Assembly (NCBI RefSeq): GCF_000513935.1
Contig: NZ_AZUY01000008.1
Location: 43,086-107,085, forward strand
Source of the DNA: Mesorhizobium sp. WSM3626
GTDB lineage: Bacteria; Pseudomonadota; Alphaproteobacteria; Rhizobiales; Rhizobiaceae
Reading direction: 5' to 3'
Length of the DNA: 64,000 nucleotides
Shown: positions 7,237 through 23,401 of the stretch, piece after piece
How the letters are laid out: every line of letters begins with the position of its first letter
Numbering within the stretch: position 1 is the first letter of the stretch
The notes under the pieces: generated by a model
Databases searched by the model: none
What the model was told of the DNA's origin: nothing
What the model saw: the letters and a program-made list of their open reading frames with translations, nothing else
Translations under genes and position numbers: made by a program

Positions 7237-8301
7237 CTAGTGCAACACCAGCATATCGCTCGACGAGAACGAAATCTCGGCCTTTTCACCGACCGCGGGC
7301 GGCGGCGTCGCCGGGCTGTTGAACGTGTCGAGCGACACCGTGTTGCCGCCGATGCCGACGCGAACACGGATCACCGAGCCGAGGAAGTGTACTTCGGAAA
7401 TCTCGCCCGAAAGACTGGAATCACGGCCGGGCTGGCGACCAAGCGAAATTGCCTCGGGCCGCAGCGCCAGCGACAGCATGTCGCCGGACTTCGAGCCGTT
7501 GAGCTTGCCCTTGAGCGAGACTTCCTGCGTGTTGACCTGCACCGTGCCGGATGCGGCGTCGGTGACCTTGCCTTCGAGCACGTTCAGCGTGCCAACGAAA
7601 TTGGCGACGAATTTGGTTGCCGGCCGGTTGTAGATCTCGAACGGTGTGCCGACCTGCTCGGCCTTGCCGCCATACATGACGGCGATGCGGTCGGAGATGG
7701 ACAGCGCCTCTTCTTGGTCATGCGTGACGAAGATAGTGGTGATGCCGAGCTTCTTCTGGATCGAGCGGATTTCCTCGCGCAGCGACACACGCACCTTGGC
7801 GTCGAGCGCCGACAGCGGCTCGTCGAGGAGCAACAGCTTCGGTTTCGGCGCGATCGCACGCGCCAGCGCAATGCGCTGCTGCTGGCCGCCGGAAAGCTGG
7901 TAGGGGTAGTGGTCCGCCATCTGCGGCAGCTTGATCATGTCGAGCATCTCGGCGACGCGGGCATCGATATCCGCCCTGGGCATGCCGGCGACCCTCAGGC
8001 CGAAGCCGATGTTCTGCGCCACGGTCAGGTTCGGGAACAGCGCATAGGCCTGGAACACCATGCCGACATTGCGCTGGTTGGGCTTCAACCGGGTGATGTC
8101 CTTGCCGGCTACGACGATCTTGCCGGCTGATGGCTCCTCGAAGCCGGCGACCATGCGCAGCACAGTGGTTTTACCACAGCCGGACGGCCCAAGAAACGAG
8201 ACGAATTCACCCGGCTCGACGTCGAGATTGAAGTCCTCCACCACCGTGGTGGCGCCGAAGGATTTTCGGACGTGCTGGATGGAGAGGAATGGCTCGGCCA
8301 T
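7237..8301 (-). CDS. ABC transporter ATP-binding protein, spermidine/putrescine/iron type
   Basis: 354 residues. Walker A is GPSGCGKTT near residue 36, the signature YQLSGGQQQRIALARA, Walker B LLLLDEPLSALDAK and the switch VTHDQEEAL. The last 110 residues form the TOBE/OB regulatory domain. I chose ATG 8301 because a GAAAGAA ribosome-binding site precedes it; a TTG five codons upstream is less likely. It is the last gene of the binding protein-permease-permease-ATPase operon and energises import of a cationic small molecule or phosphonate-like solute (inference). Confidence 0.93.
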   Translation of the reverse strand: MAEPFLSIQHVRKSFGATTVVEDFNLDVEPGEFVSFLGPSGCGKTTVLRMVAGFEEPSAGKIVVAGKDITRLKPNQRNVGMVFQAYALFPNLTVAQNIGFGLRVAGMPRADIDARVAEMLDMIKLPQMADHYPYQLSGGQQQRIALARAIAPKPKLLLLDEPLSALDAKVRVSLREEIRSIQKKLGITTIFVTHDQEEALSISDRIAVMYGGKAEQVGTPFEIYNRPATKFVANFVGTLNVLEGKVTDAASGTVQVNTQEVSLKGKLNGSKSGDMLSLALRPEAISLGRQPGRDSSLSGEISEVHFLGSVIRVRVGIGGNTVSLDTFNSPATPPPAVGEKAEISFSSSDMLVLH

Positions 8302-8316
8302 GGTTCTTTCTTTCAA

Positions 8317-9108
8317 TCAATTCGGGCGGTTGGCGGACTTCGGCGCAAACCGCGACAGGACCTGGATCAGCGACATGCAACCCCAGGTGATTACGAAAGC
8401 AATAATGGACAGCGCTGCCGGTTCATAGGCTCGGTTGGCAACCAGGTTCTGCAAATAAGGACCGAAAGCGGGCCGATTGAGCAGACTTGCCATGGTGAAC
8501 TCGCCGATGACGATCGCGAACGTGAGGAAGGCCCCGGAGAGCACGGCGATCAACACGTTGGGAAGGATCACGCGGGTGACGATCGTACCCCAGCCGGCGC
8601 CGAGGATCTGGGCCGCTTCCGTCAGCGTCCGAACGTCGATGGTACGAAGGCCGGTGTCGACTGCTCTGTACATATAGGGCAGCGCCAGCGCCGCGTAGCC
8701 GATGACCAGCAGAGCATTTGTGGCTGTATTGTTAGACAGGAACGGCAGGGGCGAATTCGAGCCGTACATCCTGATATAGCCGAAAACGATGACGATGGCC
8801 GGGATGACCAGCGGCAACAAGGTGATGAACTCGACCACCGGGCGAAGCTGGGGCAGACGCAGCCGGATCCAATAGGCGGTGGGCACAACGATTAGCACAC
8901 CAAGAAGGATGGTGAAGACCGCCACGATCACCGAATACATGAAAGTTGTCTGGAACTGGCTATCGCCGAGCACGACCTTGTAGGCGTCGAAGGAATAGAC
9001 GCCGCGACGCATGCGCAGCGAAAACTCGATCGTCGCGATGAGCGGTATGAAGAAATAGGCCGCGCCGAGGATGAAGACGATCCAGGCCCAGAATTTGCCA
9101 GCCTTCAT
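8317..9108 (-). CDS. ABC transporter permease (second)
   Basis: 263 residues with six membrane segments. It carries the EAA-type loop LTEAAQILGAGWGTIVTRVILPNV used to contact the ATPase. It resembles PotC/PhnV-type permeases. Start chosen at ATG 9108 (MKAGKFWAWIVF), which overlaps the upstream permease stop by 4 bp (ATGA), a sign of translational coupling. The 82 codons upstream of this start are a shadow of the neighbouring gene. Confidence 0.92.
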   Translation of the reverse strand: MKAGKFWAWIVFILGAAYFFIPLIATIEFSLRMRRGVYSFDAYKVVLGDSQFQTTFMYSVIVAVFTILLGVLIVVPTAYWIRLRLPQLRPVVEFITLLPLVIPAIVIVFGYIRMYGSNSPLPFLSNNTATNALLVIGYAALALPYMYRAVDTGLRTIDVRTLTEAAQILGAGWGTIVTRVILPNVLIAVLSGAFLTFAIVIGEFTMASLLNRPAFGPYLQNLVANRAYEPAALSIIAFVITWGCMSLIQVLSRFAPKSANRPN

Positions 9109-10019
9109 TTGAGCCACCTCTCGGAACGGGTCCGGAACCAGATGTAGAAGATGTTGGCCAGCCCGGTGATGAAGATCATGCCGAACGCAATCGCATAGCC
9201 GAGGTGGGCATTGTGCAGCACATCGCCGCGTATCTGCGCGTAGAGCAGGATGGGCACGATGTTGAGCGAAGAGCCCGTTAGCGCATAGGCGGTGGCGATG
9301 GCGCCGAAGGCGTTGGCGAAAAGCAAGATCACGGTGCCCAGGAAACTCGGCCATAGCACGGGTATCACAACCATCCGCCAGTACTGCGACTGTGTCGCGC
9401 CGAGCGTCGCTGCGGCCTCACCCCATTCCTTCTTCAGCCCGTCGATCGCCGGCACGATGATGACCACCATGAGCGGGATCTGGAAGTAGACATAGGTGAG
9501 CGTCAGCCCCCAGAACGACAGCAGGTTGAAACCATGCGCATAGAGATTCAGCCCGACCAGTGTATTGAGCAGAACGGTAACCAGCCCAAGGCGGCCAAGC
9601 GTGGCGATGAAAGCAAACGCAAGCGGCACGCCGGCGAAATTGGAAGCCACCCCGGAAAAGGTCAGCGTTGCCGACCGTATCCAGTTCGGCAGACCGCCTC
9701 GTACGATGGCAATCGCAATGGCCAAGCCTGCAAAGGCGCCGATCAGCGACGAGGCCAGGCTTACCTTGATCGATATCCAATAGGCGGCAACGATGTGCGC
9801 CTGCGACAACGCGAAGATGTTATCCAGCGTGAATTCGCCTGCATCGTTCTGGAATGCGCCGAGCATCAGGTAGAGCGTCGGCAAAATCAGAAACATGATG
9901 GCGAAAATGAAGAACGGCGTCACCCCGAGCCACTGCGTCGGAAACCGCAAGGCGCGCGCTTCTCCTGGGGGCGCGGTCTTTCCCGCAATGGCCTGACTGG
10001 AAAGCGTAAGATCGGTCAT
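9105..10019 (-). CDS. ABC transporter permease (first)
   Basis: 304 residues with a hydrophilic N-terminus and six or more membrane segments. The EAA loop is WGEAAATLGATQSQYWRMVVIPVL. It belongs to the binding-protein-dependent transport inner membrane family, PotB/PhnU-like. I chose ATG 10019 (MTDLTLSS). A GTG 13 codons upstream is possible but lies inside a 24-bp palindrome. It follows the binding-protein gene after that palindrome, so its expression may be lower than that of the binding protein. Confidence 0.9.
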   Translation of the reverse strand: MTDLTLSSQAIAGKTAPPGEARALRFPTQWLGVTPFFIFAIMFLILPTLYLMLGAFQNDAGEFTLDNIFALSQAHIVAAYWISIKVSLASSLIGAFAGLAIAIAIVRGGLPNWIRSATLTFSGVASNFAGVPLAFAFIATLGRLGLVTVLLNTLVGLNLYAHGFNLLSFWGLTLTYVYFQIPLMVVIIVPAIDGLKKEWGEAAATLGATQSQYWRMVVIPVLWPSFLGTVILLFANAFGAIATAYALTGSSLNIVPILLYAQIRGDVLHNAHLGYAIAFGMIFITGLANIFYIWFRTRSERWLK

Positions 10020-10046
10020 GCGCCGGCTACCGTCTTCGAGGAAAGA

Positions 10047-10070
10047 CCGGGCGGCCACGTGGCCGCCCGG
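10047..10070 (-). terminator. perfect 24-bp palindrome between binding-protein and permease genes
   Basis: Half-site CCGGGCGGCCAC is followed directly by its exact reverse complement. On the minus strand it is 11 bp past the binding-protein stop and is followed by TCTTTCCTCG. This placement fits an intra-operon attenuator or RNA-stabilising hairpin that keeps the binding protein more abundant than the membrane parts. Confidence 0.6.
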
Positions 10071-10081
10071 TGGATTTCAAG

Positions 10082-11188
10082 TTACTTGACGTTGGCGCCG
10101 ACGACAGCGTCCCAGTTCTTGGTGATGGCTTCCTTGGCTTTGCCCTGTTCGTCGAGCGTCGGGAACGCGGCGGCGGCATAGGATTCCGCCGGCGGCAGCT
10201 TGGCCAGCACGTCAGCCGGGACCTTGCCGTTCTTGGCAAGATCGTTGAAGCGGATCGGGTGGCAATAGCCCTTCAGCCAGCCGATCTGCCCCTCGTCCGA
10301 ATAGAGGTATTCCATCCACAGCTTGGCTGCATTCGGATGCGGCGCGAAAGCGCTGATCGCCTGCACGTAGACACCGGCGACAACGCCGGTCTTCGGCACG
10401 ATGACGTCGACGGGCGGGTTGCCCTTCAGCGTGTCGCGGCCCGAAAGCGCGTTGTAGTCCCAGGTGACGAGGATCGGCGTCTGGCCCTGGGCGAGCGTCG
10501 CCGTCTTGCCGATGACCGGCACGAAATTGCCGGCGGCGTTGAGCTTCTTGAAGAAGTCGAGGCCAGCGGTGCCGGCGGCTTCACCAGCTGCCGCACCACC
10601 GGAAAGGCCGGCGGCGTAGACGGCCTGGATGGCCTGGTTCGAAGCGCGCGGATCACCGGCAAGCGCGACCGAGTTGGCGAATTCCGGCTTCAGCAGGTCG
10701 GCCCAGTCGGTTGGAGCTTCCTTGACCAGATCCTTGTTCACTTCGAAGGCGAGCACACCGTAATAATCGCCATACCAGGCGCCATCGGCATCCTTGGCGC
10801 TGTCCGGGATCGAGTCCCAGGTCGACACCTTGTAGGGCATCAACAGGCCGTCGGCCTTGGCGGTCGGGCCGAAGGACAGGCCGACGTCGATGACATCAGG
10901 AGCCTGCGGGCCCTTGTTGTCCTTGTTGGCCTTGATCGCCTCGACTTCATCGCCGGAACCGGCGTCGGGGTTGAGTTCGTTGACGGTGATTTCCGGATAT
11001 TTCGCCTTGAAGCCGGCAATGACGTCACCGTAGCCGCACCAGTCATGCGGCAAGGCGATCGTGGTGAGCTGGCCTTCGGCTTTGGCGGCCTTGATGAGAT
11101 CGTCCATCGAAGCGGCGGACGAAATCACCGACGACACCATGAGGGTCGCGGCCGAAAGGGAAAGTACTTTCCCCGTGAATTTGAACAT
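10082..11188 (-). CDS. ABC transporter extracellular solute-binding protein (family 1)
   Basis: 368 residues with an N-terminal signal peptide (MFKFTGKVLSLSAATLMV, probable cleavage near SSAAS). The body resembles the iron/polyamine/2-aminoethylphosphonate binding proteins: AKAEGQLTTIALPHDWCGYGDVIAGFKAKYPEI, then a ligand-cleft region WYGDYYGVLAFEVNKD. A strong GGAGAG ribosome site precedes the ATG. It captures the solute in the periplasm for the two permeases and ATPase downstream. The exact ligand cannot be read. The neighbouring amine-like catabolic operon suggests an amine or amino alcohol, but that is inference. Confidence 0.9.
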   Translation of the reverse strand: MFKFTGKVLSLSAATLMVSSVISSAASMDDLIKAAKAEGQLTTIALPHDWCGYGDVIAGFKAKYPEITVNELNPDAGSGDEVEAIKANKDNKGPQAPDVIDVGLSFGPTAKADGLLMPYKVSTWDSIPDSAKDADGAWYGDYYGVLAFEVNKDLVKEAPTDWADLLKPEFANSVALAGDPRASNQAIQAVYAAGLSGGAAAGEAAGTAGLDFFKKLNAAGNFVPVIGKTATLAQGQTPILVTWDYNALSGRDTLKGNPPVDVIVPKTGVVAGVYVQAISAFAPHPNAAKLWMEYLYSDEGQIGWLKGYCHPIRFNDLAKNGKVPADVLAKLPPAESYAAAAFPTLDEQGKAKEAITKNWDAVVGANVK

Positions 11189-11432
11189 GTGTTCTCTCCA
11201 TTGAACTGACGCCGTTGGACGTCTGCGATGCGGTAGCGTTTCCGTGTGACAGCCAAATGAAAGCTTTGTGAAACCAGCGCCTCGCAGCGTGAAAAGTTAA
11301 CTCTTTTTAACGGACTGTAGCAATTAGCCATCACTTAACTTTCCGGCTAATCATTAATCCGCCGCTATATCGCCCCTTCCCCTTTCCTTTCCCCTCGTTT
11401 CTCGATCAACTTCCGCACCCCGGAAACCGGCC

Positions 11433-12605
11433 TCAGACCGTCCCGGCGATCGCGTTTTCGAGCAGTGTCAGCGCCGCCTTCTTGGTCAGCTTGACTGGGT
11501 TGCCGCCGGCCGTTGGATCGACCACCGCCATGTCGGCGATCAGCGCCTTGCGCTTCTTGTCCATGTCGAGCCCCTTGATCAGACCCGGCAGCGCGTGCGG
11601 CACCTTCAATTCCTTGCGCAGCTTGATGATTGCCTTGGCGAAGCCGTCGAAGCCGCCCTTGATGCCGCAATAGGCGGCAAGCCGGGCAATGCGCTCCTCG
11701 ATGGAGTCCCGGTTGAAGGCCAGCACGTAAGGCATGAACACGGCATTGGTCATGCCGTGATGAGTGTCGTAGAGCGCGCCGATCGGATGCGACAGCGAGT
11801 GGATGGCGCCCAGCCCCTTCTGGAAGGCGGCAGCACCCATGGCGGCCGCGCTCATCATATGGGCGCGGGCGACGAGGTCCCCACCGTTGGCATAAGCCTT
11901 CGGCAGGTTCTCGAAGACCAGGCGCACGCCTTCCACGGCAATGCCATCGGCCATGGGATGATAGCCCGGCGCGCAATAGGCTTCGAGGCAATGGGCAAGC
12001 GCGTCCATGCCGGTGCCGGCGGTGATGAAGCCCGGCATGCCGACCGACAGTTCCGGATCGGCAATGACGATCGCCGGCAAAAGTTTCGGGTGGAAGATGA
12101 CCTTCTTGGTATGGGTCGCCTCATTGGTGATGACACCGGCGCGACCGACCTCCGAGCCGGTGCCTGCCGTGGTCGGCACGGCGATGATCGGGGCGATCGC
12201 ATCGGAGTCGGCGCGCGTCCACCAATCACCGACATCCTCGAAATCCCAGACCGGCCGCGTCTGGCCGGCCTGAAAAGCGATCAGCTTGCCGAGGTCGAGC
12301 GCCGAGCCGCCGCCGAAAGCGATGACACCGTCATGCTTGCCCTTCTTGAACACCGCGATGCCGGCGGTGAGGTTGGAGTCCACCGGGTTCGGCTTCACCT
12401 CGGAGAACACGCCATAGGGCACCTTGGCCTCATCGAGAATCCTGAGCGTCGAGGCGACGACCGGCAGTTTCGCCAGGCCCGGATCAGTCACGAAAAGCGG
12501 CCGCTTGATGCCGGTGGCCGCGAGCACCTCCGGCAATTCCTTGATGCGCCCGGCGCCGAAGCGGACGGTGGTGGGGTAGTTCCATTTGGAGATGAGCTTG
12601 GACAT
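11433..12605 (-). CDS. iron-containing alcohol dehydrogenase
   Basis: 390 residues of the Fe-ADH/1,3-propanediol dehydrogenase family. Motifs seen: GAGRIKELPEVL at the N-terminus, the nucleotide-binding FGGGSALDLGK, AVPTTAGTGSEV, and the metal-binding region DALAHCLEAY...HSLSHPIGALYDTHHG, whose Asp and His residues bind Fe2+. Members oxidise alcohols or reduce aldehydes with NAD(P). It is 17 bp downstream of the aldehyde dehydrogenase gene and is the last gene of the operon starting at 17949. In that setting it could oxidise the hydroxyl of a gamma-glutamylated amino alcohol (inference). Confidence 0.93.
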   Translation of the reverse strand: MSKLISKWNYPTTVRFGAGRIKELPEVLAATGIKRPLFVTDPGLAKLPVVASTLRILDEAKVPYGVFSEVKPNPVDSNLTAGIAVFKKGKHDGVIAFGGGSALDLGKLIAFQAGQTRPVWDFEDVGDWWTRADSDAIAPIIAVPTTAGTGSEVGRAGVITNEATHTKKVIFHPKLLPAIVIADPELSVGMPGFITAGTGMDALAHCLEAYCAPGYHPMADGIAVEGVRLVFENLPKAYANGGDLVARAHMMSAAAMGAAAFQKGLGAIHSLSHPIGALYDTHHGMTNAVFMPYVLAFNRDSIEERIARLAAYCGIKGGFDGFAKAIIKLRKELKVPHALPGLIKGLDMDKKRKALIADMAVVDPTAGGNPVKLTKKAALTLLENAIAGTV

Positions 12606-12622
12606 TGCTTGTCTTTCAAAAA

Positions 12623-14011
12623 TCAGATGGCTTCGCGCAGGTGGAATGACTTCGGCCTCGTTAGATTGTCGTAGCCGATGGCCGACAGCCCGGCGCCCTT
12701 GCCGGTGTCCTTGACACCGGTCCAGACCAGCGCCGGATCGAGATAGTCGCAGCGGTTCATGAACACCGTGCCGGTCTCGACCCTGTCGCCGATCGCCACC
12801 GCATGCTCGGTGTCGCGCGTCCAGATCGAGGCGGTCAGCCCATAGGCGCTGTCGTTCATCAAAGCGATCGCCTCTTCGTCGTTGCGCACCTTCATGATGC
12901 CGACGATCGGGCCAAAACTTTCCTCGCGCATGACGCTCATCTGGTGGTCGACTCCGGTCAACACCTCCGGCGCCAGGTAGGGCGAGCCGGGCTCGTCGTT
13001 AGCCACCTTCATATTGATATGGGCCTTAGCGCCCTTGCGAAGCGCTTCGGCCTTCTGCTCGCGGATCAGGTCGGCGAAACGCGCCTGCGCCATCGGCCCC
13101 ATCGTCGTCACCTGCTCCACAGGATTGCCGACGACATAATTCTTCGTCTCGGCGATGAAGCCTTCGACGAACTCGTCATAGACCTTCTCGTGCACATAGA
13201 CGCGCTCGATGCCGCAGCAGCACTGGCCGGAATTGAAGAAAGCGCCGTCGACCAGATTGGCGACCGCATGGTCCATCTTGGCATCGGGCAGCACATAGGC
13301 CGGATCCTTGCCACCAAGCTCGAGGCCAAGCGTCATGAAGGTGCCTGCCGCCGCCTTTTCGATGGCGCGGCCGCCGCCGACCGAGCCGGTGAAATTGACA
13401 TGGTCGATCTTGCCCGAACCCAGCAGTTTTTCGGTCTGGGCGTGGTTGAGAACCCCGTTCTGGAACACGCCCTTGGGTAGGCCAGCCTTGTCGAAGGCCT
13501 GCTGGAAGCGCTCCCCGACCAGCAATGTCTGCGCCGCATGTTTCAGGATAACGGCGTTGCCGGCCATCAGCGCCGGTACGATGGTGTTGACGGCGGTGAG
13601 ATAAGGATAGTTCCACGGCGCGATCACCATGACCACGCCGAGCGGATCCTTCTTCACATAGCGGCGGAAGCCGTTCTTCGGGTTGGAGGCCGGCACCGAC
13701 TTGAGCGCCTGCTCGGCGATCTCGACCATATAGTTGGTGCGTTCCTTGACGCCGCCGAACTCGCCGCCATAGCGAACCGGCCGCCCCATTTGCCAGGCTA
13801 TCTCCGGCACGATCTCGTCGGTCATCGCGACCAGCGCTTCGAGCATCGCCAGCATGTATTTGCCGCGCTCGACGATCGGCGTCTCAGCCCACTTCTCCTG
13901 CGCCGCCTTGGCGCGCTCGACCGCGGCGTTGATCGCCTGACCCGTCGCGATCGGACGCTCGGCGTAGATCGAGCCGTCGATGGGAGATTTTAACTTGACC
14001 GTTTCGGTCAT
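12623..14011 (-). CDS. aldehyde dehydrogenase family protein
   Basis: 462 residues, slightly short for the family (about 480-500) at the N-terminus. Key motifs: IAPWNYPYLTAVNTIVPALMAGN for cofactor binding, NFTGSVGGGRAIEKAA, the general-base Glu in LELGGKDPAYVL, and the catalytic Cys in FFNSGQCCCGIERVYV. It oxidises an aldehyde to an acid with NAD(P)+. It sits between the glutamine-synthetase-like ligase and the Fe-ADH, so the substrate is probably the aldehyde formed in that pathway, such as a gamma-glutamyl aminoaldehyde (inference). Confidence 0.93.
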   Translation of the reverse strand: MTETVKLKSPIDGSIYAERPIATGQAINAAVERAKAAQEKWAETPIVERGKYMLAMLEALVAMTDEIVPEIAWQMGRPVRYGGEFGGVKERTNYMVEIAEQALKSVPASNPKNGFRRYVKKDPLGVVMVIAPWNYPYLTAVNTIVPALMAGNAVILKHAAQTLLVGERFQQAFDKAGLPKGVFQNGVLNHAQTEKLLGSGKIDHVNFTGSVGGGRAIEKAAAGTFMTLGLELGGKDPAYVLPDAKMDHAVANLVDGAFFNSGQCCCGIERVYVHEKVYDEFVEGFIAETKNYVVGNPVEQVTTMGPMAQARFADLIREQKAEALRKGAKAHINMKVANDEPGSPYLAPEVLTGVDHQMSVMREESFGPIVGIMKVRNDEEAIALMNDSAYGLTASIWTRDTEHAVAIGDRVETGTVFMNRCDYLDPALVWTGVKDTGKGAGLSAIGYDNLTRPKSFHLREAI

Positions 14012-14094
14012 TCGTTCAGTCCTCGCACTTCATGAATCTTGATTTGCGCCGCCGCCATTCCAGCGATGGGCGGAGAGGGCAGCGGCGGCTTGGT

Positions 14095-15465
14095 TTAATA
14101 TCGTTCGAACCCTCTGTGCAGTTCCCAATCCGTGATCCGGCGATCGTATTCGAACTGTTCCCACTTCGCTGTGTGGACATAGTGCTCGAGCACATCCTCC
14201 CCGAGCGCCTGCTTCAGCATCTTCGACTTGGCCAGCGTCTCCGTGGCATCGCGCAACGTCTTCGGAATCTCCGGCAAACGAGAAGCCTGATAGGCGTCGC
14301 CGACGAAAGGCTTCTGCAATTCCAGCTTCTCGTCGATGCCGGCAAGGCCGGCCGCGATCAGCGCCGCGAAGGCCAAATAAGGATTGAGGTCGGCGCCGCC
14401 GATGCGGCATTCCATGCGGATGCCCTTGGTGCCCTCGCCGCACAGGCGGAAGCCGGCGGTGCGGTTGTCCTCGCTCCACATGATCTTGGTCGGCGCGAAG
14501 GTGCCGGCCTGGAAGCGCTTGTAGGAGTTGATGTAGGGCGCCAGGAACCAGGTGAAGTCCTTGGCGTATTTCAATTGTCCGGCCGCCCATTGCTGGCCGA
14601 GCGTCGACAAGGTCCAGTTGGCCTTCTTGTCGAAGAACAGCGGCGTCTTGCCATCGGCGCTCCACAGCGAGTTGTGGATGTGGCTGGAATTGCCGGCGAG
14701 CCCGTAATTGTACTTCGACATGAAGGAGATCGCCTTGCCTTCGGACTCGGCGATTTCCTTGGCGCCGTTCTTCAGGATGACGTGGCGGTCGGCCATGTCG
14801 AGCGCTTCGGCATAGCGCACATTGATCTCTTCCTGGCCCGGGCCCCACTCGCCCTTGGAATTCTCGATCGGAATGCCGGCCGCTTCCATCTCGTTGCGAA
14901 GCCGGCGCATGACGCCTTCTTCCTTGGTGGTGATGCCGATCTGGTAATCGCCGATATAGGGCGAAGCGGTGTCGAGACCTTGCCAGTGCTTCTTGCGGGC
15001 GGAATCATAGGTCTCGTTGAACAGGTAGAATTCGAGCTCGGAAGCGAAATAGCCGATATAGCCGCGCTCGCTCAGCCGCTTGACCTGTTTCTTCAGGATG
15101 GCGCGCGGCGAATGCGGCAGGTCGTCATGGGTGTGGTGGTCGAGCACGTCGCAGATCACCAGCGCCGTCTTCTCCAGCCATGGAATGCGCCGCAGCGTCG
15201 CCAGGTCCGGCTTCATGACGAAATCGCCATAGCCCTTCGACCAGCTTGCCGCCTTGTAACCCGGCACCGGTTCCATATCGATGTCGGCCGCCAGCAGATA
15301 GTTGCAGCCATGCGTCTCGTCATGCGCGGAATCGACGAAATATTGCGCCAGGAACCGTTTTCCCGCCAGTCGGCCCTGCATGTCGACGATGCAGGCCAGC
15401 ACCGTGTCGATCTCGCCATTGGAGACCGCTTTCTTCAACTGATCGAACGAGAAATTTCCGGCCAT
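14095..15465 (-). CDS. glutamine synthetase family protein, probable gamma-glutamyl-amide ligase
   Basis: 456 residues with the GS catalytic core. GEWGPGQEEINVRYAEALDMAD holds metal-binding Glu residues, NSSHIHNSLW holds the ATP/metal His, and RMECRIGGADLNPYLAFAA the Glu/Arg pair near the C-terminus. The C-terminus WEQFEYDRRITDWELHRGFERY is of the PuuA/IpuC kind and lacks the adenylylation Tyr loop of housekeeping GlnA. Such enzymes join glutamate to an amine or amino alcohol using ATP. The permease lies upstream and aldehyde and alcohol dehydrogenases downstream, which supports a catabolic ligase. The amine is not known. Confidence 0.88.
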   Translation of the reverse strand: MAGNFSFDQLKKAVSNGEIDTVLACIVDMQGRLAGKRFLAQYFVDSAHDETHGCNYLLAADIDMEPVPGYKAASWSKGYGDFVMKPDLATLRRIPWLEKTALVICDVLDHHTHDDLPHSPRAILKKQVKRLSERGYIGYFASELEFYLFNETYDSARKKHWQGLDTASPYIGDYQIGITTKEEGVMRRLRNEMEAAGIPIENSKGEWGPGQEEINVRYAEALDMADRHVILKNGAKEIAESEGKAISFMSKYNYGLAGNSSHIHNSLWSADGKTPLFFDKKANWTLSTLGQQWAAGQLKYAKDFTWFLAPYINSYKRFQAGTFAPTKIMWSEDNRTAGFRLCGEGTKGIRMECRIGGADLNPYLAFAALIAAGLAGIDEKLELQKPFVGDAYQASRLPEIPKTLRDATETLAKSKMLKQALGEDVLEHYVHTAKWEQFEYDRRITDWELHRGFERY

Positions 15466-15510
15466 TCCTTTGGCACTCCAGTGCTTGGTCGTTGAAAGGG
15501 AGAAACAAAA

Positions 15511-15537
15511 CCATGGCCGGCGCGATGCCGGCCATGG
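15511..15537 (-). terminator. hairpin with T-run between permease and ligase genes
   Basis: CCATGGCCGGC is separated by GCGAT from its exact reverse complement (11-bp stem, 5-base loop). On the minus strand it is followed at once by TTTTGTTTCTCCC, the form of an intrinsic terminator. It lies inside the operon, between the APC permease stop (15553) and the ligase start (15465), so it would attenuate the catabolic genes relative to the first two. Confidence 0.7.
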
Positions 15538-15552
15538 CCATGATGGCGGATG

Positions 15553-17109
15553 TCAGTGGCCCGTTTCGCCGACCGCCTGCTCCGCTGCTTTGATCGCCGC
15601 CTGGCGCGCCGCGATGATGTCGCCGAGCGGCGGACCCTGGAAGCGGTTGCGCTCGAAAGCGAACCAGACGATCGCAGTCAGGATGAAGAAGCCGACAGTG
15701 ATGTAGAGCGCCCAGTCATTCGGCGGCTGGATGCCGATGATGAAGATCAGGACCATCGACACAATCGACAGGAAGCCGAACAGCATGAACACGCCGCGCC
15801 CCATGTTCCACGGCCCCATCTTGTCCCACTTCGGTGTGCCCCAGGCCAGCATGCCGAGCACGATCGGCACGATGAAGGATAGGAACAGGAAGATGACGGT
15901 GCAGGACACGACGATGGTGTAGGCCGAGGTGCCGGCGACCGAAACCAGCGTCGAGCCCCAGACGAACAGCACCGACAGGATCGACGCCGTCCAGATCGCC
16001 GCCACCGGCGTTCGGTAAGTCGGGCTGACCTTGGCAAGGGCCGATGAACCGGGCAGGCCGCCGTCGCGCGAGAAGGCGAAGATCATGCGCGAGGCCGACG
16101 TGACGGTGGCAAGGCCGCACAGCAGCTGAGCGACGAAAACGACGAGATAGACGAATTCCTTGATGCCGGGGCTGACGCGCTGGTCGAAGGCCCAGAAGAA
16201 CACGTTCCAGCCCTGCTTGGCGGCGTCGTCCATGTTGGGGATCATCAGCACGAAGGCGACGAGGAACAGATAGCCGAACAGTGCCGACCAGATCACCGAC
16301 ATGACCATGGCGCGCGGCACCGAGGAAGCCGCCTTGATGGTTTCCTCGGAAGTGTGCGCCGAAGCGTCGTAGCCGGTGATCGTGTAGATCGGGAGCAAGA
16401 GCCCGAGCGCGAACACCCAAGCGTTCGAAACCTGCGGCCAGACGCCGCCGCCGGCATCGCCGGAGTAATTGTGGAACGTAAACAGCCGGCCGAAATCCCA
16501 ATGTTCCGCCGAGATCAGGCAGACCACCGCGATCAGGATGGCGCCGAAGAAGATCAGATAGCCCGAGAAATCAGTCAGCTTCGCCGTCAGCTTGATGCCG
16601 AGATGGTTGATCAGGGCCTGGGCGCCGGTGATGATGATCAGGAAGATCATCTGGTTGGTCAGCGTGCCCTCGATGCCAAGCGCTGGCCCGAAGGCGCCGA
16701 CGAAGAACGTCCAGGTGCCGACATTGATGGCACCGAGCACGGTGATCAGGCCGAGCAGATTCAACCAGGCTGTCACCCAGCCGGTGCCACGGTTGCCGAG
16801 GATGGAACCCCAGTGATAGAGGCCGCCGGCGGTCGGATAGGCCGAGCTGATCTGCGACATGGCGACGGCGAAGGTCAGCGAGACAAAACAGCCGACCAGC
16901 CAACCGATGCCGATGCCGATGCCGCCGGCGCCTGAGGTGCCTTGCGCCAGCGAATTGATGCCGCCCGACAGGATGCAGATAATGGAGAAGGAAACCGCGA
17001 AATTCGAAAAGCGGCTGAGGCGCCGCTCCAGTTCCTGGGCGTAGCCCATGCTGTGGAGGGCCTTTACGTCCTCCGCTTTGTCAACGTCTGTATAGCCCGG
17101 TGCTGTCAT
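15553..17109 (-). CDS. APC family amino acid/amine permease
   Basis: 518 residues with about twelve membrane segments. The start region YAQELERRLSRFSNFAVSFSIICILSGGINSL is typical of the amino acid/choline (ACT) group of APC carriers, which includes GABA, choline and polyamine permeases. YPTAGGLYHWGSILGNRGTGWVTAWLNLLG is the conserved TM3 region and GYDASAHTSEET the TM6-7 region. It should import an amino acid or amine by proton symport. Genes upstream (amidohydrolase, 21 bp away) and downstream (ligase) suggest the same substrate feeds the pathway. Confidence 0.9.
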   Translation of the reverse strand: MTAPGYTDVDKAEDVKALHSMGYAQELERRLSRFSNFAVSFSIICILSGGINSLAQGTSGAGGIGIGIGWLVGCFVSLTFAVAMSQISSAYPTAGGLYHWGSILGNRGTGWVTAWLNLLGLITVLGAINVGTWTFFVGAFGPALGIEGTLTNQMIFLIIITGAQALINHLGIKLTAKLTDFSGYLIFFGAILIAVVCLISAEHWDFGRLFTFHNYSGDAGGGVWPQVSNAWVFALGLLLPIYTITGYDASAHTSEETIKAASSVPRAMVMSVIWSALFGYLFLVAFVLMIPNMDDAAKQGWNVFFWAFDQRVSPGIKEFVYLVVFVAQLLCGLATVTSASRMIFAFSRDGGLPGSSALAKVSPTYRTPVAAIWTASILSVLFVWGSTLVSVAGTSAYTIVVSCTVIFLFLSFIVPIVLGMLAWGTPKWDKMGPWNMGRGVFMLFGFLSIVSMVLIFIIGIQPPNDWALYITVGFFILTAIVWFAFERNRFQGPPLGDIIAARQAAIKAAEQAVGETGH

Positions 17110-17130
17110 TGGAAGTCCCCTGTTTGTTTC

Positions 17131-17949
17131 TCAGCTGGCCGATTGGACTGACTTTCTGACTGAATGCGATCTGGGCCGCGTGGCCTCCTCTGGCTCCAGA
17201 TTGGAAAAAATGCCGGTGAGCAGATCCGCCCATTTCCGCTGCCCGGTCTCGCCGGAGATTTCGTCGTTGCGGATCTCGATCATCGCACAGGGCAAGCCGC
17301 GCGAACGTGCGTGCCGTTCCAGCGTGAAATAGACGCGGTCGGCCGGCGAATAGGGCTCGTTGACGCCGACGGTTACGCCGGCAAGCCGCTTGAGTGCCGC
17401 GATCAGCGGCGCCGCCAGGCGGCGATCCTCGTCATGGATAATGCCGATGTGCCAGGGCCGGTTTTTGGACTTGTAGACCGGCGTGAAGGAATGGACGGAG
17501 ACCAGCCGCGTCTCCTGGCCGCGCGCCAGCCGCTCCTCGACGATGCGCCCGATCGTGCTGTGAAATGGCTGCCATGACAGGGCCACCCGCGCCGCGAGCT
17601 GCTTCTGGGACAGGCCGGTATTGCCCGGTATGGCTGTCGTTTCGCTGACCTGCGGCACCAGGTCCGGCGCGTCGAGCGGCCGATTGCAGTCGACGACCAA
17701 CCGCGAAATCCGGGTTTCGACCAGCGTGGCATCGAGTGCCTGCGCCATCCGCGACGCAACCGGCAGCGCACCGGGATCCCAGGCGATGTGGCGCGTCAGG
17801 TCCTCGGCGGCGAGGCCGAGCGTGCCGAATTCGGTCGGCAGGAAATTGGAAGCGTGGTCGCAGGTCAGTACGAAAGGGCTCGATCCGCCGGCGTTCATCA
17901 CCCGCACGGTATCAGACGATGCAAGGCTGGCGGGCCGTGCTTTCTCCAT
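17131..17949 (-). CDS. N-formylglutamate amidohydrolase family protein
   Basis: 272 residues. Family motifs: FVLTCDHASNFLP with a metal-binding His near residue 30, LVVDCNRPLDAPDLVP, VSVHSFTPVY, and MIEIRNDEISGETGQRKWADLL at the C-terminus. The family includes N-formylglutamate deformylase of histidine degradation and many zinc amidohydrolases found with gamma-glutamyl pathways. No hut gene is present here, so a role in releasing glutamate from a gamma-glutamyl amide is a reasonable inference. It is the first gene of the minus-strand operon and divergent from the RpiR regulator. Confidence 0.85.
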   Translation of the reverse strand: MEKARPASLASSDTVRVMNAGGSSPFVLTCDHASNFLPTEFGTLGLAAEDLTRHIAWDPGALPVASRMAQALDATLVETRISRLVVDCNRPLDAPDLVPQVSETTAIPGNTGLSQKQLAARVALSWQPFHSTIGRIVEERLARGQETRLVSVHSFTPVYKSKNRPWHIGIIHDEDRRLAAPLIAALKRLAGVTVGVNEPYSPADRVYFTLERHARSRGLPCAMIEIRNDEISGETGQRKWADLLTGIFSNLEPEEATRPRSHSVRKSVQSAS

Positions 17950-18090
17950 AGTCTGCCGTCCCCGGGGAGCGCTGTATCGTATGTTACGTATTTTGCCTCA
18001 TTGCGTCCCTACGGATGATTTCATACAGTTTGTTTGGCTTTGTCAAATGCGATCTGGGGAAAAGATCGTCGACGGCCAGGGTGGGAGAAG
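17950..18090. promoter_or_regulatory. divergent regulatory region with operator-like inverted repeat
   Basis: This 141-bp stretch separates the divergent amidohydrolase and RpiR genes and should hold both promoters. At 17978-17988 CGTA-TGT-TACG forms a short inverted repeat in an AT-rich patch (TATCGTATGTTACGTAT). It may be the operator of the adjacent RpiR protein. The call rests on position and symmetry only. Confidence 0.35.
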
Positions 18091-18918
18091 ATGATTTCCA
18101 ACATTGCCGAATTGATCGCCGACCGCATCGGCGCGATGCCCGCCGGCGAACGGCGAGCGGCGCAGACGCTGATCGCGAACTATCCGATGATCGGCCTGAA
18201 GACGGTCGCCGAATTCTCATCCGCGGCCGGCGTCTCCTCGCCGACAATCCTGCGTTTTGTCGCCCGGCTCGGCTTCCAGAACTATCCCGAGTTCCAGTCG
18301 GGCCTGCAGGACGAACTGGCGGCGCAATTGCAGTCGCCGGCGATACGAACGCTCAATCCGCCCTCGCCCAATGGCGGCACGGTGTCGCCCATGCTGGAAG
18401 CGACGCTCGACAACATGCGCGAGACCTTCAGGCATCTATCCGACAGGCAGCTTGCCGACATTGCCACCAGGCTGGCCGAGCGGCGCGGCAAGACCTTCCT
18501 CATCGGCGGCCGCTTCACCGATCCGCTGGCGCGCTACATGGCAGCCCATCTGGCCGTCATCCAGCCCGATGTCTTTCACCTCGCCGGCCAGGAGAGCATG
18601 TGGCGCGACAGGCTGATCGACATGGGCAAGCGCGACGTGCTGGTGATCTTCGACATCAGGCGCTACCAGGGCAGCCTCCTCCGCTTTGCCGAGAAGGCGC
18701 ATCAGCGCGGCGTGCAGATCGTGCTGTTCACCGACCAGTGGCTGTCGCCGATCGCCCGCTTTGCCCGCCACGTCATCGCCGGACGAACCGCAGTGCCTTC
18801 CGCATGGGACTCCTCGGCGGCGCTTTTTGTCGTCGCCGAAACGCTGATCGGCGCCGTCACAAGACAACTCGAGGCCGACGGTGCCCGGCGCATCCGCGAG
18901 ATGGAAGGCCTGCGATAA
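18091..18918 (+). CDS. MurR/RpiR family transcriptional regulator
   Basis: 275 residues. The N-terminal RpiR helix-turn-helix is visible as TVAEFSSAAGVSSPTILRFV near residues 33-52, and a C-terminal SIS domain begins about residue 130 (KTFLIGGRFTDPLARYMAAH). I chose ATG 18091, preceded by GGGAGAAG; an upstream in-frame start gives a basic tail without a ribosome site. RpiR proteins sense phosphosugars or related metabolites and bind DNA as dimers. Its divergent position suggests control of the operon ending at 11433. Confidence 0.88.
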   Translation: MISNIAELIADRIGAMPAGERRAAQTLIANYPMIGLKTVAEFSSAAGVSSPTILRFVARLGFQNYPEFQSGLQDELAAQLQSPAIRTLNPPSPNGGTVSPMLEATLDNMRETFRHLSDRQLADIATRLAERRGKTFLIGGRFTDPLARYMAAHLAVIQPDVFHLAGQESMWRDRLIDMGKRDVLVIFDIRRYQGSLLRFAEKAHQRGVQIVLFTDQWLSPIARFARHVIAGRTAVPSAWDSSAALFVVAETLIGAVTRQLEADGARRIREMEGLR

Positions 18919-19118
18919 GCAGATCCCCCGGGGGCATCGCATCGGCTCCGCTGCAGCGTCCCGAATTCACGTTACCGAGATTTAATGTGCACGATTGCGT
19001 GATAATTGCCATAAACCGATGATATCGGGGCGTGGCCGGTTGTTGCCGCCAGCCCGCATCGTCGCTGCATCCGCTTCCACCTGGAACCCAGCGGACGATT
19101 GTTGCCGCTGGAGTATCG

Positions 19119-20273
19119 ATGTCGAGCTGGAAACAGATTGTCCTTGCATTTGTGATCGTGGTCGCCGCCGTGGCTGCGTGGGCGCGTTTCTACCCCGGCG
19201 CTCCCGAAGTGCTGTCACGCTGGGGGATTGACTGGGCATATGGCGCGATGCCTCCAGCAAAGGACACCGCAGCGGCTGGCGCCCGGCAGACGGAGCGCAC
19301 CCGGATTGCCACGATCGTCGCGTCGCCAGCCAGCATGGCCACGATCAACGACCGCTTGCAGGCGATCGGCACCGGCCGCGCCAACGCCTCGGTGACCGTC
19401 AATCCCTATAGTTCCGGCCGCCTTGCCGAACTGCTGGTCGAATCCGGCAGCCACGTCGATAAGGGGCAGATCATCGCATCGCTCGATTCCGATACGGAGA
19501 TCATCGCCCAGAACCGGGCCAAGCTCGCTTTGCAGGATGCCCAGTCCAAGCTCGACCGCGTCAAGTCGTTGCGTGCCTCAAACGCCGCGACGCCGGTCGC
19601 GGTCGCCGATGCCGAAGTGGTGCTGGCCGGCGCCAAGCTGGCGCTTCAGGATGCCGAGCTTGCGCTGCAGCGCCGCTCGATCCTGGCGCCTATCGCCGGT
19701 ACCGTTGGCATCCTGCCGATCTCGGCCGGCAACTATGTGACCAACCAGTCGGCGATCGCCACGCTTGACGACCGCTCCTCGATCCTGGTCGATTTCCAGG
19801 TGCCCGAGCGCTTCGCCGCCGCCGTCAAGGTCGGCGCGCAACTGACGGCGACGCCGATCGCCAATCCGAGCAACGCCTATACCGGAACGGTGTCGGCGAT
19901 CGACAACCACATCGACGAAAAGAGCCGTACCCTGCTGGTCAAGGCCAAGATCGCCAACCCGGCCGATTCGCTGCGCGCCGGCATGTCGTTCTCCATCACC
20001 ATGAAATTCCCCGGCGAGACTTATCCGGCCGTCAGCCCGCTGGCGATCCTGTGGGGATCGGAGGGCGCCTATGTCTGGCAGATCGAGGACGGCAAGGCCA
20101 GGCGGTTGCCGGTTCGCATCATCCAGCGCAACACCGAAACCGTATTGATCGACGCGAAGATCGACAGCGGCGACATGGTGGTCATCGAAGGCACCCAAAG
20201 TGTCAGCGAAGGCGGCGAGGTTCGCATCGCCGGCCAGGACCAGCGCGCCGCCAACGCCGCGGAAGGCTCATGA
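19119..20273 (+). CDS. RND efflux periplasmic adaptor (HlyD/MFP family)
   Basis: 384 residues. A single N-terminal membrane segment (WKQIVLAFVIVVAAVAAWARF) anchors it. The lipoyl-like part GRLAELLVESGSHVDKGQIIASLDSDTEI is followed by an alpha-helical hairpin (about residues 140-195), the second lipoyl half RRSILAPIAGTVGILPISAGNYV, and the beta-barrel domain. ATG 19119 follows a GGAG site. It links the RND pump to an outer-membrane channel. Its stop overlaps the pump start by 4 bp. No outer-membrane factor gene is adjacent. Confidence 0.92.
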   Translation: MSSWKQIVLAFVIVVAAVAAWARFYPGAPEVLSRWGIDWAYGAMPPAKDTAAAGARQTERTRIATIVASPASMATINDRLQAIGTGRANASVTVNPYSSGRLAELLVESGSHVDKGQIIASLDSDTEIIAQNRAKLALQDAQSKLDRVKSLRASNAATPVAVADAEVVLAGAKLALQDAELALQRRSILAPIAGTVGILPISAGNYVTNQSAIATLDDRSSILVDFQVPERFAAAVKVGAQLTATPIANPSNAYTGTVSAIDNHIDEKSRTLLVKAKIANPADSLRAGMSFSITMKFPGETYPAVSPLAILWGSEGAYVWQIEDGKARRLPVRIIQRNTETVLIDAKIDSGDMVVIEGTQSVSEGGEVRIAGQDQRAANAAEGS

Positions 20274-23200: not shown

Positions 23201-23401
23201 GGCGCGGGCGCCGAGGCACGCGTGGCGCTCGGCTGGGTCATCGTCGGCGGGCTTGGCCTGGCCACCGTCTCGACGCTGTTCCTGACACCGGTCGCCTATC
23301 TCCTGCTTGGCCGCTTCGTCACCCCGAAGACCCACGAGGAAGCACGGCTGAAGCGCGAACTCGAGGAAGCCGTCTACACCAATGTGGAACCGGCGCAATA
23401 G
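20270..23401 (+). CDS. RND family efflux pump, inner-membrane transporter
   Basis: 1043 residues, full length for HAE-type RND pumps. Start at ATG 20270 is fixed by the ATGA overlap with the adaptor gene. FIRRPVMAFVLNTLIAVAG is TM1. LATGLVVDDAIVVLENIVRRR in TM4 holds the paired Asp residues of proton relay, and GVMAKNGILIVEFANQLRD lies in TM10 with its conserved Lys. Two large periplasmic domains are present in the usual places. It should export drugs or toxic organic compounds, driven by protons. It ends 7 bp from the convergent GtrA gene. Confidence 0.95.
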   Translation: MTGSANASSDTGFTALFIRRPVMAFVLNTLIAVAGLAAFYGVEIRELPDVDRAVVTVSTTFEGAAAETVDRELTDTIEGAVARVSGVKSISSSSSFGSSRVTIEFNDGVDLNVAASDVRDAVGRVANQMPDTADPPRIVKADANSDAVMRLAVTSDTMSIQDMTVVVQDQIEDELAAVPGVADVQVYGDRDKIFRIDVDQNKLASLGFTVADLRAALASVAFDSPAGSITTTNQDLIVRTTADVTTPEEFENIIIGGTTRIRDVATVTLGPDIGQTTLRSDGKTGIGIGIIRQAESNTLDISTGVQAAVAKLQENLPKGMSIKITSDDAVFVKGAVHEVEIALGLSVTMVLIVIYVFLLDWRATLIPGLSMPVAMIGTIAAIYLAGFSVNILTLLALVLATGLVVDDAIVVLENIVRRRNEGMGPRAAAVLGAQEVFFAVVATTLTLVAVFVPISFLPGQTGGLFREFGFVLAMSVLLSCVVALTLCPMLASRMLTSASLHHEGGHGIGARIGGVLNAGYKRALHACLDAPWIVVLVAVLFAGIAFALFGTIRQELTPTEDRAAVLLRINAPQGVSLDYTTQQMQRIERLIQPMRDSGEIRSTFENAGQNGSYNSGFMVMTLAPWDERSRSQQEIMAEISQLTRQVPSVRIFPVQPNSLGIRGAGNGLQFALVGNDRKALGDAAVKIIAEMQKDQRFQTPRLSIDPTQPQLAVAIDRERASDLGIDITGLANTMQAMLDGNDVVDIYIADRSYGVKLVSTTNPINDPTDLENVFLKTADGRFVPMSTIATLTERAVPPSLSREQQQPSVAITSNLSGNFALGDALTRAQEIAAPLLPPGSRILPLAEAATLGETNSAMVTIFGFALVIILLVLAAQFESFVSAVIIMATVPLGLACAIFALLLSGTSLNAYSQIGLVLLVGVMAKNGILIVEFANQLRDRGLGVREAIEQASTIRLRPVMMTMICTILGGVPLVLAAGAGAEARVALGWVIVGGLGLATVSTLFLTPVAYLLLGRFVTPKTHEEARLKRELEEAVYTNVEPAQ

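What the first reader, a model, noticed from the sequence alone, without database searches (positions are those of the whole stretch)
11433..18918. Candidate gamma-glutamylation pathway for an amino alcohol
One minus-strand operon encodes an amidohydrolase of the N-formylglutamate type, an APC amine permease, a GS-like ligase of the PuuA/IpuC kind, an aldehyde dehydrogenase and an iron alcohol dehydrogenase, with a divergent RpiR regulator. In order of chemistry this would import an amino alcohol, attach glutamate, oxidise alcohol to aldehyde and acid, then remove glutamate. No amine oxidase gene of the PuuB type is present, which argues against the polyamine route. Known parallels are gamma-glutamyl ethanolamide formation in Streptomyces and the isopropylamine/alaninol route in Pseudomonas. 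The combination with Fe-ADH looks distinct from these.
Basis: partly seen in the sequence, partly recalled or inferred. Interest (0 to 1): 0.68.

Follow-up and report, generated by a model that had tools for sequence, protein, structure and literature searches.

The report
Ethanolamine breakdown operon with glutamate tag
A soil bacterium related to plant-root symbionts carries a gene set that very probably tags ethanolamine, a piece of membrane lipid, with glutamate, oxidises it to glycine and takes the tag off again; the pathway is already described in other bacteria, but a neighbouring importer that may answer to phosphate hunger looks less familiar.

Summary
The reading (gamma-glutamylation of an amino alcohol) is very probably right, and the likely substrate is ethanolamine. 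The route is not new. Westermann et al. 2023 (PMC10132767) describe the same order in Phaeobacter: RpiR, gamma-glutamylglycine amidohydrolase, importer, ligase, aldehyde dehydrogenase, gamma-glutamylethanolamide dehydrogenase, and cite Chromohalobacter and Agrobacterium. The Fe-ADH is therefore not distinctive. The window differs in the importer: an APC permease stands where Phaeobacter has the TRAP system EtoVWX.

Three results go beyond the finding. (1) In 121 genomes of the family this ligase (86) and the cobalamin enzyme EutB (22) rarely coexist (4; Fisher p 1e-8; p 4e-4 on a RecA tree); a wider sample of 289 shows no significant exclusion. (2) An ABC importer beside the operon carries a PHO-box-like site, as pstS and phnH do in this genome; it may bring in a phosphorus-bearing ethanolamine compound. 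(3) A 62-63% identical ligase sits in putative rhizobitoxine clusters, where serinol, another amino alcohol, is expected. No activity was measured. Filed as a new member of a known kind.

The parts
18091..18918 (+). RpiR/MurR-type regulator (HTH_6 + SIS), divergent; listed ORF starts at TTG 18034, likelier ATG 18091
   Evidence: Pfam HTH_6, SIS; sequence and conserved upstream blocks
17974..18047 (-). conserved intergenic blocks TTTGACAAA (18039-18047), GTATGAAATCAT (18015-18026), GTAACATACGATAC (17974-17987): candidate operon promoter and RpiR operator
   Evidence: alignment of 20 intergenic regions; TTGACAA is invariant in the 20; not found by the sigma-70 consensus scan
17131..17949 (-). 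FGase family, predicted gamma-glutamylglycine amidohydrolase
   Evidence: PF05013 161 bits; only 25.8 of 278.75 bits for the HutG deformylase model; PDB match 2odf, Atu2144
15553..17109 (-). APC permease, predicted ethanolamine importer; stands where other operons have TRAP EtoVWX-type or Eat-like permeases
   Evidence: PF13520; comparison with relatives
14095..15465 (-). GS-like ligase, predicted gamma-glutamylethanolamide synthetase
   Evidence: PF00120; below GlnA, GSIII and PuuA cut-offs; PDB 11zs and 5dm3; catalytic Glu of GlnA replaced by Phe323
12623..14011 (-). aldehyde dehydrogenase, predicted gamma-glutamyl-aminoacetaldehyde to gamma-glutamylglycine
   Evidence: PF00171 392 bits; NSGQCC and LELGGKD motifs present
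11433..12605 (-). iron-containing alcohol dehydrogenase, predicted gamma-glutamylethanolamide dehydrogenase
   Evidence: PF00465 and PF25137; GMDALAH and AIHSLSHP/DTHHG motifs
11246..11263 (-). PHO-box-like site CTTTCATTTGGCTGTCAC, 57 nt upstream of the SBP start
   Evidence: the pattern was written after the site had been seen
10082..11188 (-). ABC substrate-binding protein (SBP_bac_6), distantly like 2-aminoethylphosphonate-binding proteins
9105..10058 (-). ABC permease 1
   Evidence: PF00528
8317..9108 (-). ABC permease 2 (likely start MKAGKF at 9108, inside ORF 8317-9354)
7237..8316 (-). ABC ATPase (PhnT2-like, just under cut-off: 437 of 457.7 bits)

Best explanation
This is a cobalamin-independent ethanolamine catabolic operon. 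Ethanolamine enters (probably by the APC permease), the GS-like ligase joins it to the gamma-carboxyl of glutamate with ATP, the Fe-ADH oxidises the alcohol to an aldehyde, the ALDH oxidises that to gamma-glutamylglycine, and the FGase-family amidohydrolase releases glycine and returns glutamate. RpiR controls the operon. Shown here: gene content, conserved order, loss of the ammonia-site glutamate, kinship to the operon type described elsewhere, and rare co-occurrence with EutB in the family sample. Inferred: every reaction, the substrate, the direction of transport and the regulation.
For: Published operon with the same gene order and ethanolamine assignment: Phaeobacter MED193_10021-10056, five of its proteins raised on phosphorylethanolamine, EtoX Kd 7.9 uM for ethanolamine; the Streptomyces paper proposes dehydrogenase, aldehyde dehydrogenase and FGase steps to glycine. 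The ligase is closest to PDB 11zs (Brucella melitensis, 71% in Foldseek) and 5dm3 (Csal_0679). Same order with a TRAP importer in Ruegeria B32 and Paracoccus denitrificans. The TRAP binding protein beside the ligase of Brucella grignonensis matches 4uab at E 2e-152. In five of five relatives tested (of 15 with neither APC nor TRAP) the gene before the ligase is a permease whose best NCBIfam model is ethanolamine permease TIGR00908 (329-374 bits, cut-off 381.75). GlnA Glu327 is Phe in 16 of 16 family members. Ligase 86 of 121, EutB 22 of 121, both 4; Fisher p 1.3e-8, dependent-evolution test p 3.6e-4 on 119 tips. Own genome: no EutB match. In 3 of 11 plasmid records opened, bhc genes for glyoxylate/glycine carbon lie directly downstream.
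Against: No activity, growth or expression was measured. The window's own permease does not match the ethanolamine permease model. In the wider class sample exclusion with EutB is not significant (ligase 31, EutB 23, both 1 of 289; p 0.49). Much of the family signal appears to come from one run of 11 EutB-bearing tips (tip order), and the two-trait test is sensitive to single events. 12 of 66 relatives lack a nearby FGase, among them the seven Pseudomonas loci in that set. The second ammonia-site residue is less clear: Pro in 13 of 16, but Asp, as in GlnA, in one Ruegeria homologue. Homologous ligases in putative rhizobitoxine clusters suggest that the family is not confined to ethanolamine.
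Confidence: 0.85

Rival explanations
1. Same chemistry, but the main substrate of the window's enzyme set is another amino alcohol (alaninol, 1-amino-2-propanol, serinol or a mixture).
For: The importer in the window differs from the ethanolamine TRAP system; a 62-63% identical ligase lies in putative rhizobitoxine clusters where serinol is an intermediate.
Against: Rare coexistence with EutB, which acts on ethanolamine; nine relatives with 74-90% identical ligases (L077, L079-L081, L085-L089) have a TRAP importer of the 4uab-matching kind before the ligase.
Confidence: 0.1
2. Polyamine or alkylamine route of the PuuA/PauA/IpuC kind.
For: GS-like ligase, ALDH and an amidohydrolase occur in both kinds of route (E. 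coli Puu genes).
Against: No amine oxidase in the operon, ligase far below the PuuA model cut-off (194 of 650 bits), 28% identity to E. coli PuuA, FGase instead of a PuuD-type hydrolase, and an alcohol dehydrogenase that putrescine would not need.
Confidence: 0.03
3. An ordinary ammonia-assimilating glutamine synthetase next to unrelated genes.
For: It belongs to the GS fold and matches the GlnA model at 246 of 429 bits.
Against: Ammonia-site Glu327 is Phe in 16 of 16 members; gene order conserved in 63 of 66 relatives for ALDH and for ADH; seven other GS-like places in this genome, two of them probably one gene.
Confidence: 0.02

Closest known systems
Phaeobacter sp. MED193 ethanolamine operon MED193_10021-10056 (RpiR, GGAH, EtoVWX, ETAGA, GAADDH, GETADH), PMC10132767 (passages seen)
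   Same: Same gene order and predicted chemistry; RpiR next to the amidohydrolase
   Different: TRAP importer EtoVWX in place of the window's APC permease; no linked ABC importer is named in the figure legend seen
Chromohalobacter salexigens Csal_0678/0679 and Agrobacterium C58 pathway (Vetting et al. 2015; not held, known only through PMC10132767)
   Same: Ligase 5dm3 (Csal_0679) is a direct homologue; the Agrobacterium protein Atu2144 (2odf) is the nearest solved FGase, though that it belongs to the C58 pathway was not checked
   Different: C. salexigens has a TRAP ethanolamine-binding protein
Streptomyces coelicolor GlnA4 gene region (PMC6529630, passage seen)
   Same: gamma-glutamylethanolamide synthetase with predicted dehydrogenases SCO1611/1612 and FGase SCO1615
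   Different: Actinobacterial; sequences were not compared here
E. coli Puu pathway
   Same: Logic of glutamate tagging, oxidation and untagging
   Different: PuuB oxidase, PuuD hydrolase; ligase only 28% identical
Pseudomonas KIE171 ipu isopropylamine/alaninol route (recalled)
   Same: GS-like ligase acting on amines
   Different: Gene set not compared here; I looked for papers only

Membership tests
gamma-glutamyl ethanolamine operon (Phaeobacter/Chromohalobacter type) | ligase of the Csal_0679 family | tested here: met
   5dm3 at E 4e-169 over the full length
gamma-glutamyl ethanolamine operon (Phaeobacter/Chromohalobacter type) | FGase, ligase, ALDH and ADH together in this order with divergent RpiR | tested here: met
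   Phaeobacter order
gamma-glutamyl ethanolamine operon (Phaeobacter/Chromohalobacter type) | an importer gene in the operon (its type varies among relatives) | tested here: met
   APC between FGase and ligase in the window; within 8 kb of the ligase 36 of 66 relatives have an APC, 15 a TRAP, 15 neither. The TRAP type itself is absent from the window
gamma-glutamyl ethanolamine operon (Phaeobacter/Chromohalobacter type) | activity on, and induction by, ethanolamine | not testable with these tools
   needs assay
glutamate-ammonia ligase (GlnA) | catalytic Glu327 and score over the model cut-off | tested here: not met
   Phe323; 246 of 429 bits
gamma-glutamylputrescine pathway (Puu) | PuuB oxidase in the operon and score over the PuuA model cut-off | tested here: not met
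Pho regulon (for the ABC importer only) | PHO-box-like direct repeat upstream | tested here: met
Pho regulon (for the ABC importer only) | PhoB-dependent induction at low phosphate | not testable with these tools
   needs expression data

The most novel reading that the evidence does not exclude
The ABC system at 7237-11188 is a PhoB-controlled importer of a phosphorus-bearing ethanolamine compound (phosphoethanolamine, glycerophosphoethanolamine or 2-aminoethylphosphonate). In 48 of the 86 ligase-bearing genomes of the family sample it lies within 12 kb of the gamma-glutamyl ethanolamine ligase, so that lipid head groups taken up for phosphate would also feed nitrogen and carbon metabolism. 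The operon itself acts as the B12-free replacement for EutBC in this family.
Probability: 0.35. Interest if true: 0.55.

Novelty: new member of a known kind. Interest (0 to 1): 0.36.

Why it matters
Ethanolamine use is usually taught as the EutBC, B12-dependent route. In the sampled family the glutamate-tag ligase is about four times as common as EutB (86 against 22 of 121 genomes) and the two seldom meet. If the linked ABC importer is indeed switched on by phosphate shortage, root bacteria would have a direct genetic link between scavenging phosphorus from membrane head groups and using their nitrogen and carbon, as proposed for the ocean with a different importer (PMC10132767).

Tried and rejected
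A structure model of the Brucella grignonensis TRAP binding protein (meant to read the ligand from PDB titles) had mean pLDDT 41.6 and was not searched; that 4uab is Csal_0678 with bound ethanolamine is therefore recalled, backed by what PMC10132767 says of Csal_0678. Vetting et al. 2015 and Yuan et al. 2006 are not held. A first gene-order listing chose many antisense frames and was cut; it was replaced. I looked for a gene always next to the ABC importer in 14 genomes with EutB and no ligase and in 2 with neither; the widespread extra frames run against the ABC genes and I discounted them as antisense on that reading, without a further test. Campylobacter literature on a possible homologue of the ABC binding protein led nowhere. 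The passages seen of two S. meliloti stress papers did not name this operon; I did not know its locus tags there. The sigma-70 scan found no site in the RpiR-FGase gap. EutB exclusion in the wider class sample was not significant. The pattern search finds only the window's site in the genome, but its pattern was written after that site was seen, so I give it no weight. Chromohalobacter, Streptomyces and ipu gene sequences were not compared beyond PDB matches.
Full report
WHAT IS THERE. The window lies in a Mesorhizobium genome: a 99%-identical ligase is found in two Mesorhizobium sp. M7A strains and a 98% one in M. amorphae; the window's own genome is 6.28 Mb in 106 contigs. The six genes of the finding are real and at the stated places. 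Profile searches name them as an FGase-family amidohydrolase, an APC permease, a GS-like ligase, an aldehyde dehydrogenase, an iron-containing alcohol dehydrogenase and a divergent RpiR regulator. None of the NCBIfam matches shown for the four enzymes reaches its curated cut-off (for the ALDH the best 25 of 45 are shown), so automatic annotation leaves their exact function open. Below the Fe-ADH, after 244 bases, follows an ABC importer on the same strand: binding protein, two permeases, ATPase.

IS THE ORDER MORE THAN CHANCE. Of these 80, 66 have at least 5 kb on both sides of the ligase. Of the 66, 63 have the ALDH and 63 the Fe-ADH directly downstream, 54 the FGase, 52 the divergent RpiR, and 53 FGase, ALDH and Fe-ADH together. 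The 12 without FGase include the seven Pseudomonas loci in that set. The 80 are the closest relatives, so these figures do not speak for the whole family.

WHAT THE LIGASE IS. In the PDB the nearest chains are 11zs, a Brucella melitensis protein, and 5dm3, Csal_0679 of Chromohalobacter salexigens (titles). Its identity to E. coli GlnA and PuuA is 27 and 28%. The glutamate of GlnA that serves the ammonium site (E. coli Glu327; its role is recalled) is Phe323 here, and Phe in 16 of 16 aligned family members. The residue aligned with GlnA Asp50 is Pro in 13 of 16, but it is Asp in one Ruegeria homologue (L154), and that stretch aligns poorly and is modelled with low confidence. An ammonia-only enzyme is therefore unlikely.

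WHICH SUBSTRATE. Four lines point to ethanolamine. First, literature: passages of PMC10132767 describe the Phaeobacter operon RpiR, gamma-glutamylglycine amidohydrolase, TRAP importer EtoVWX, ethanolamine gamma-glutamylase, aldehyde dehydrogenase and gamma-glutamylethanolamide dehydrogenase. [quoted passage not shown] salexigens and Agrobacterium C58 (its reference 32, Vetting et al. 2015, not held). A passage of PMC6529630 proposes the same steps for Streptomyces, with an FGase as last enzyme; a passage of PMC5812351 lists ethanolamine as a surprising TRAP ligand from the same survey. Second, the importers: within 8 kb of the ligase 36 of the 66 relatives have the window-type APC, 15 a TRAP system and 15 neither. 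The TRAP binding protein of one (Brucella grignonensis) matches PDB 4uab at E 2.4e-152; that 4uab is Csal_0678 with ethanolamine is recalled. Five of the 15 with neither were tested; all five hold, before the ligase, a permease whose best NCBIfam model is ethanolamine permease TIGR00908, each below its cut-off (329 to 374 of 381.75 bits). The window's own APC does not match that model. Third, rare coexistence with EutB: see below. Fourth, product: of 11 plasmid records opened (of 38 with a match), 3 carry beta-hydroxyaspartate-cycle genes directly downstream, which fits glycine and glyoxylate as the way out. The order of the published operon, with an annotated iron-containing alcohol dehydrogenase in last place, is seen in Ruegeria sp. 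B32 and Paracoccus denitrificans.

ALTERNATIVE TO EutBC. In a sample of 121 genomes of the window's family (109 genera; Rhizobiaceae in GTDB, recalled) the ligase (E at most 1e-100) is in 86 and EutB in 22; 4 have both, 18 EutB alone, 82 the ligase alone, 17 neither; Fisher p 1.3e-8. On a RecA tree of 119 of the 121 (two without a full RecA match, G043 and G077, were dropped) a model in which the two traits influence each other fits better than independence (likelihood ratio 20.7, 4 df, p 3.6e-4; parsimony needs 13 changes for the ligase, 9 for EutB). Against this: by tip order one run of 11 tips contributes half of the EutB-bearing genomes, such tests can be misled by single events, one marker makes a weak tree, and in the class-wide sample of 289 the counts (31, 23, both 1) are no evidence of exclusion (p 0.49). 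The window's genome has no EutB match.

THE ABC IMPORTER. Its binding protein is weakly like 2-aminoethylphosphonate-binding proteins (58-59 bits, cut-offs 310-395). A homologue (E at most 1e-90) is in 69 of 121 genomes: 49 of 82 with the ligase alone, 14 of 18 with EutB alone, 4 of 4 with both, 2 of 17 with neither, though many of the last are very small genomes. Of the 53 genomes with both ligase and binding protein, 48 have them within 12 kb. In the stretches fetched around it from the 14 EutB-only genomes I saw no ligase, but in two (G050, G107) pieces of the operon type. Upstream of the binding protein, 57 bases from its start, stands CTTTCATTTGGCTGTCAC, close to the PHO box (CTGTCAT given for E. 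coli in a passage of PMC4415409, two units of 11 bases). In 58 upstream regions (the window and 57 loci) the best match to CTGTCATN4CTGTCAT scores 12 or more of 14 in 17 and 11 or more in 32, against 0.17% and 2.2% of shuffles, and 0 of 60 upstream regions of the FGase reach 11. Most best sites sit 70 to 100 bases before the gene on its own strand; five are on the other strand and one is far away, and those look like chance. The 58 are related, so they are not independent, and the test was made after the window's site had been seen. In the window's genome 29 sites lie within two mismatches of the consensus, against 9 for the reversed control. Nine frames downstream of such sites were scanned with Pfam: one is PstS (two overlapping sites; over the cut-off of NCBIfam), one PhnH, one a phosphonate-type binding protein (below cut-off), one DUF3419 (that this covers betaine-lipid synthase BtaA is recalled). 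The other five are a glycosyl hydrolase 25 (behind one of the three best sites), a sigma factor, a helix-turn-helix regulator, an M24 peptidase and an Fe-S assembly protein, which I would not call Pho genes. So the ABC importer is a good candidate for the Pho regulon, and its cargo would then contain phosphorus. This is inference; no expression data were seen, and the S. meliloti passages read did not name it.

REGULATION. Between RpiR and FGase three blocks are conserved in 20 aligned regions, TTGACAA being invariant. They are candidates for the operon promoter and the RpiR operator.

A COUSIN IN A BIOSYNTHETIC CLUSTER. In 4 of the 11 plasmid records opened (three Paraburkholderia, one Robbsia andropogonis) a ligase 62-63% identical to the window's is the seventh and last gene of a run with an aminotransferase, a transsulfuration-type PLP enzyme, a desaturase, a gamma-glutamyl hydrolase, a LysE exporter and homoserine succinyltransferase. 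For P. phymatum a passage of PMC5789663 describes a putative rhizobitoxine operon of seven genes; that it is this run is inferred. A passage of PMC3222319 names serinol as an intermediate. A gamma-glutamyl tag that shields serinol and is later removed by the hydrolase would explain both genes. I did not see this proposed in those passages or in the listing of one search.

VERDICT. Ordinary in its core: a new member of a described pathway. The unusual parts are the importer swap, the rare coexistence with EutB in this family sample, and the Pho-linked ABC importer.

Noticed in passing
L157, L293, L294, L295: A 62-63% identical GS-like ligase is the last gene of putative rhizobitoxine clusters together with a gamma-glutamyl hydrolase: possible gamma-glutamyl protection of serinol.
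   Followed up: partly
L155, L296, L297: On two Aminobacter plasmids and one Paracoccus pantotrophus plasmid the operon is followed directly by beta-hydroxyaspartate-cycle genes (bhc), joining ethanolamine to glycine/glyoxylate assimilation; one is plasmid pMET3 of Aminobacter sp. NyZ550.
   Followed up: partly
window 11246-11263 and 57 homologous upstream regions: PHO-box-like site, mostly at a similar distance upstream of the ABC binding protein.
   Followed up: yes
L279 and L281: In two EutB-bearing genomes without the ligase the ABC importer stands near an ALDH (G050) or an APC and Fe-ADH (G107), like remnants of the operon.
   Followed up: no
window 18034-18091: The first-start RpiR frame overlaps the conserved promoter blocks; ATG 18091 is the likelier start.
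   Followed up: yes
window 19032-23401: Two long frames directly after RpiR look like a membrane-fusion and an RND-type efflux protein (by eye; families not searched).
   Followed up: no
L092-L099: Pseudomonas loci carry the ligase, mostly with ALDH, Fe-ADH and APC, but no FGase or RpiR was found nearby (L095 and L096 have short flanks); which hydrolase removes the glutamate there is open.
   Followed up: no
G057, G071, G092, G094: Four genomes hold both the ligase and EutB; G071 has only a more distant EutB match (476 bits) and G057 such a match besides a normal one, against 641-728 bits for the best match of the other 21 genomes.
   Followed up: no
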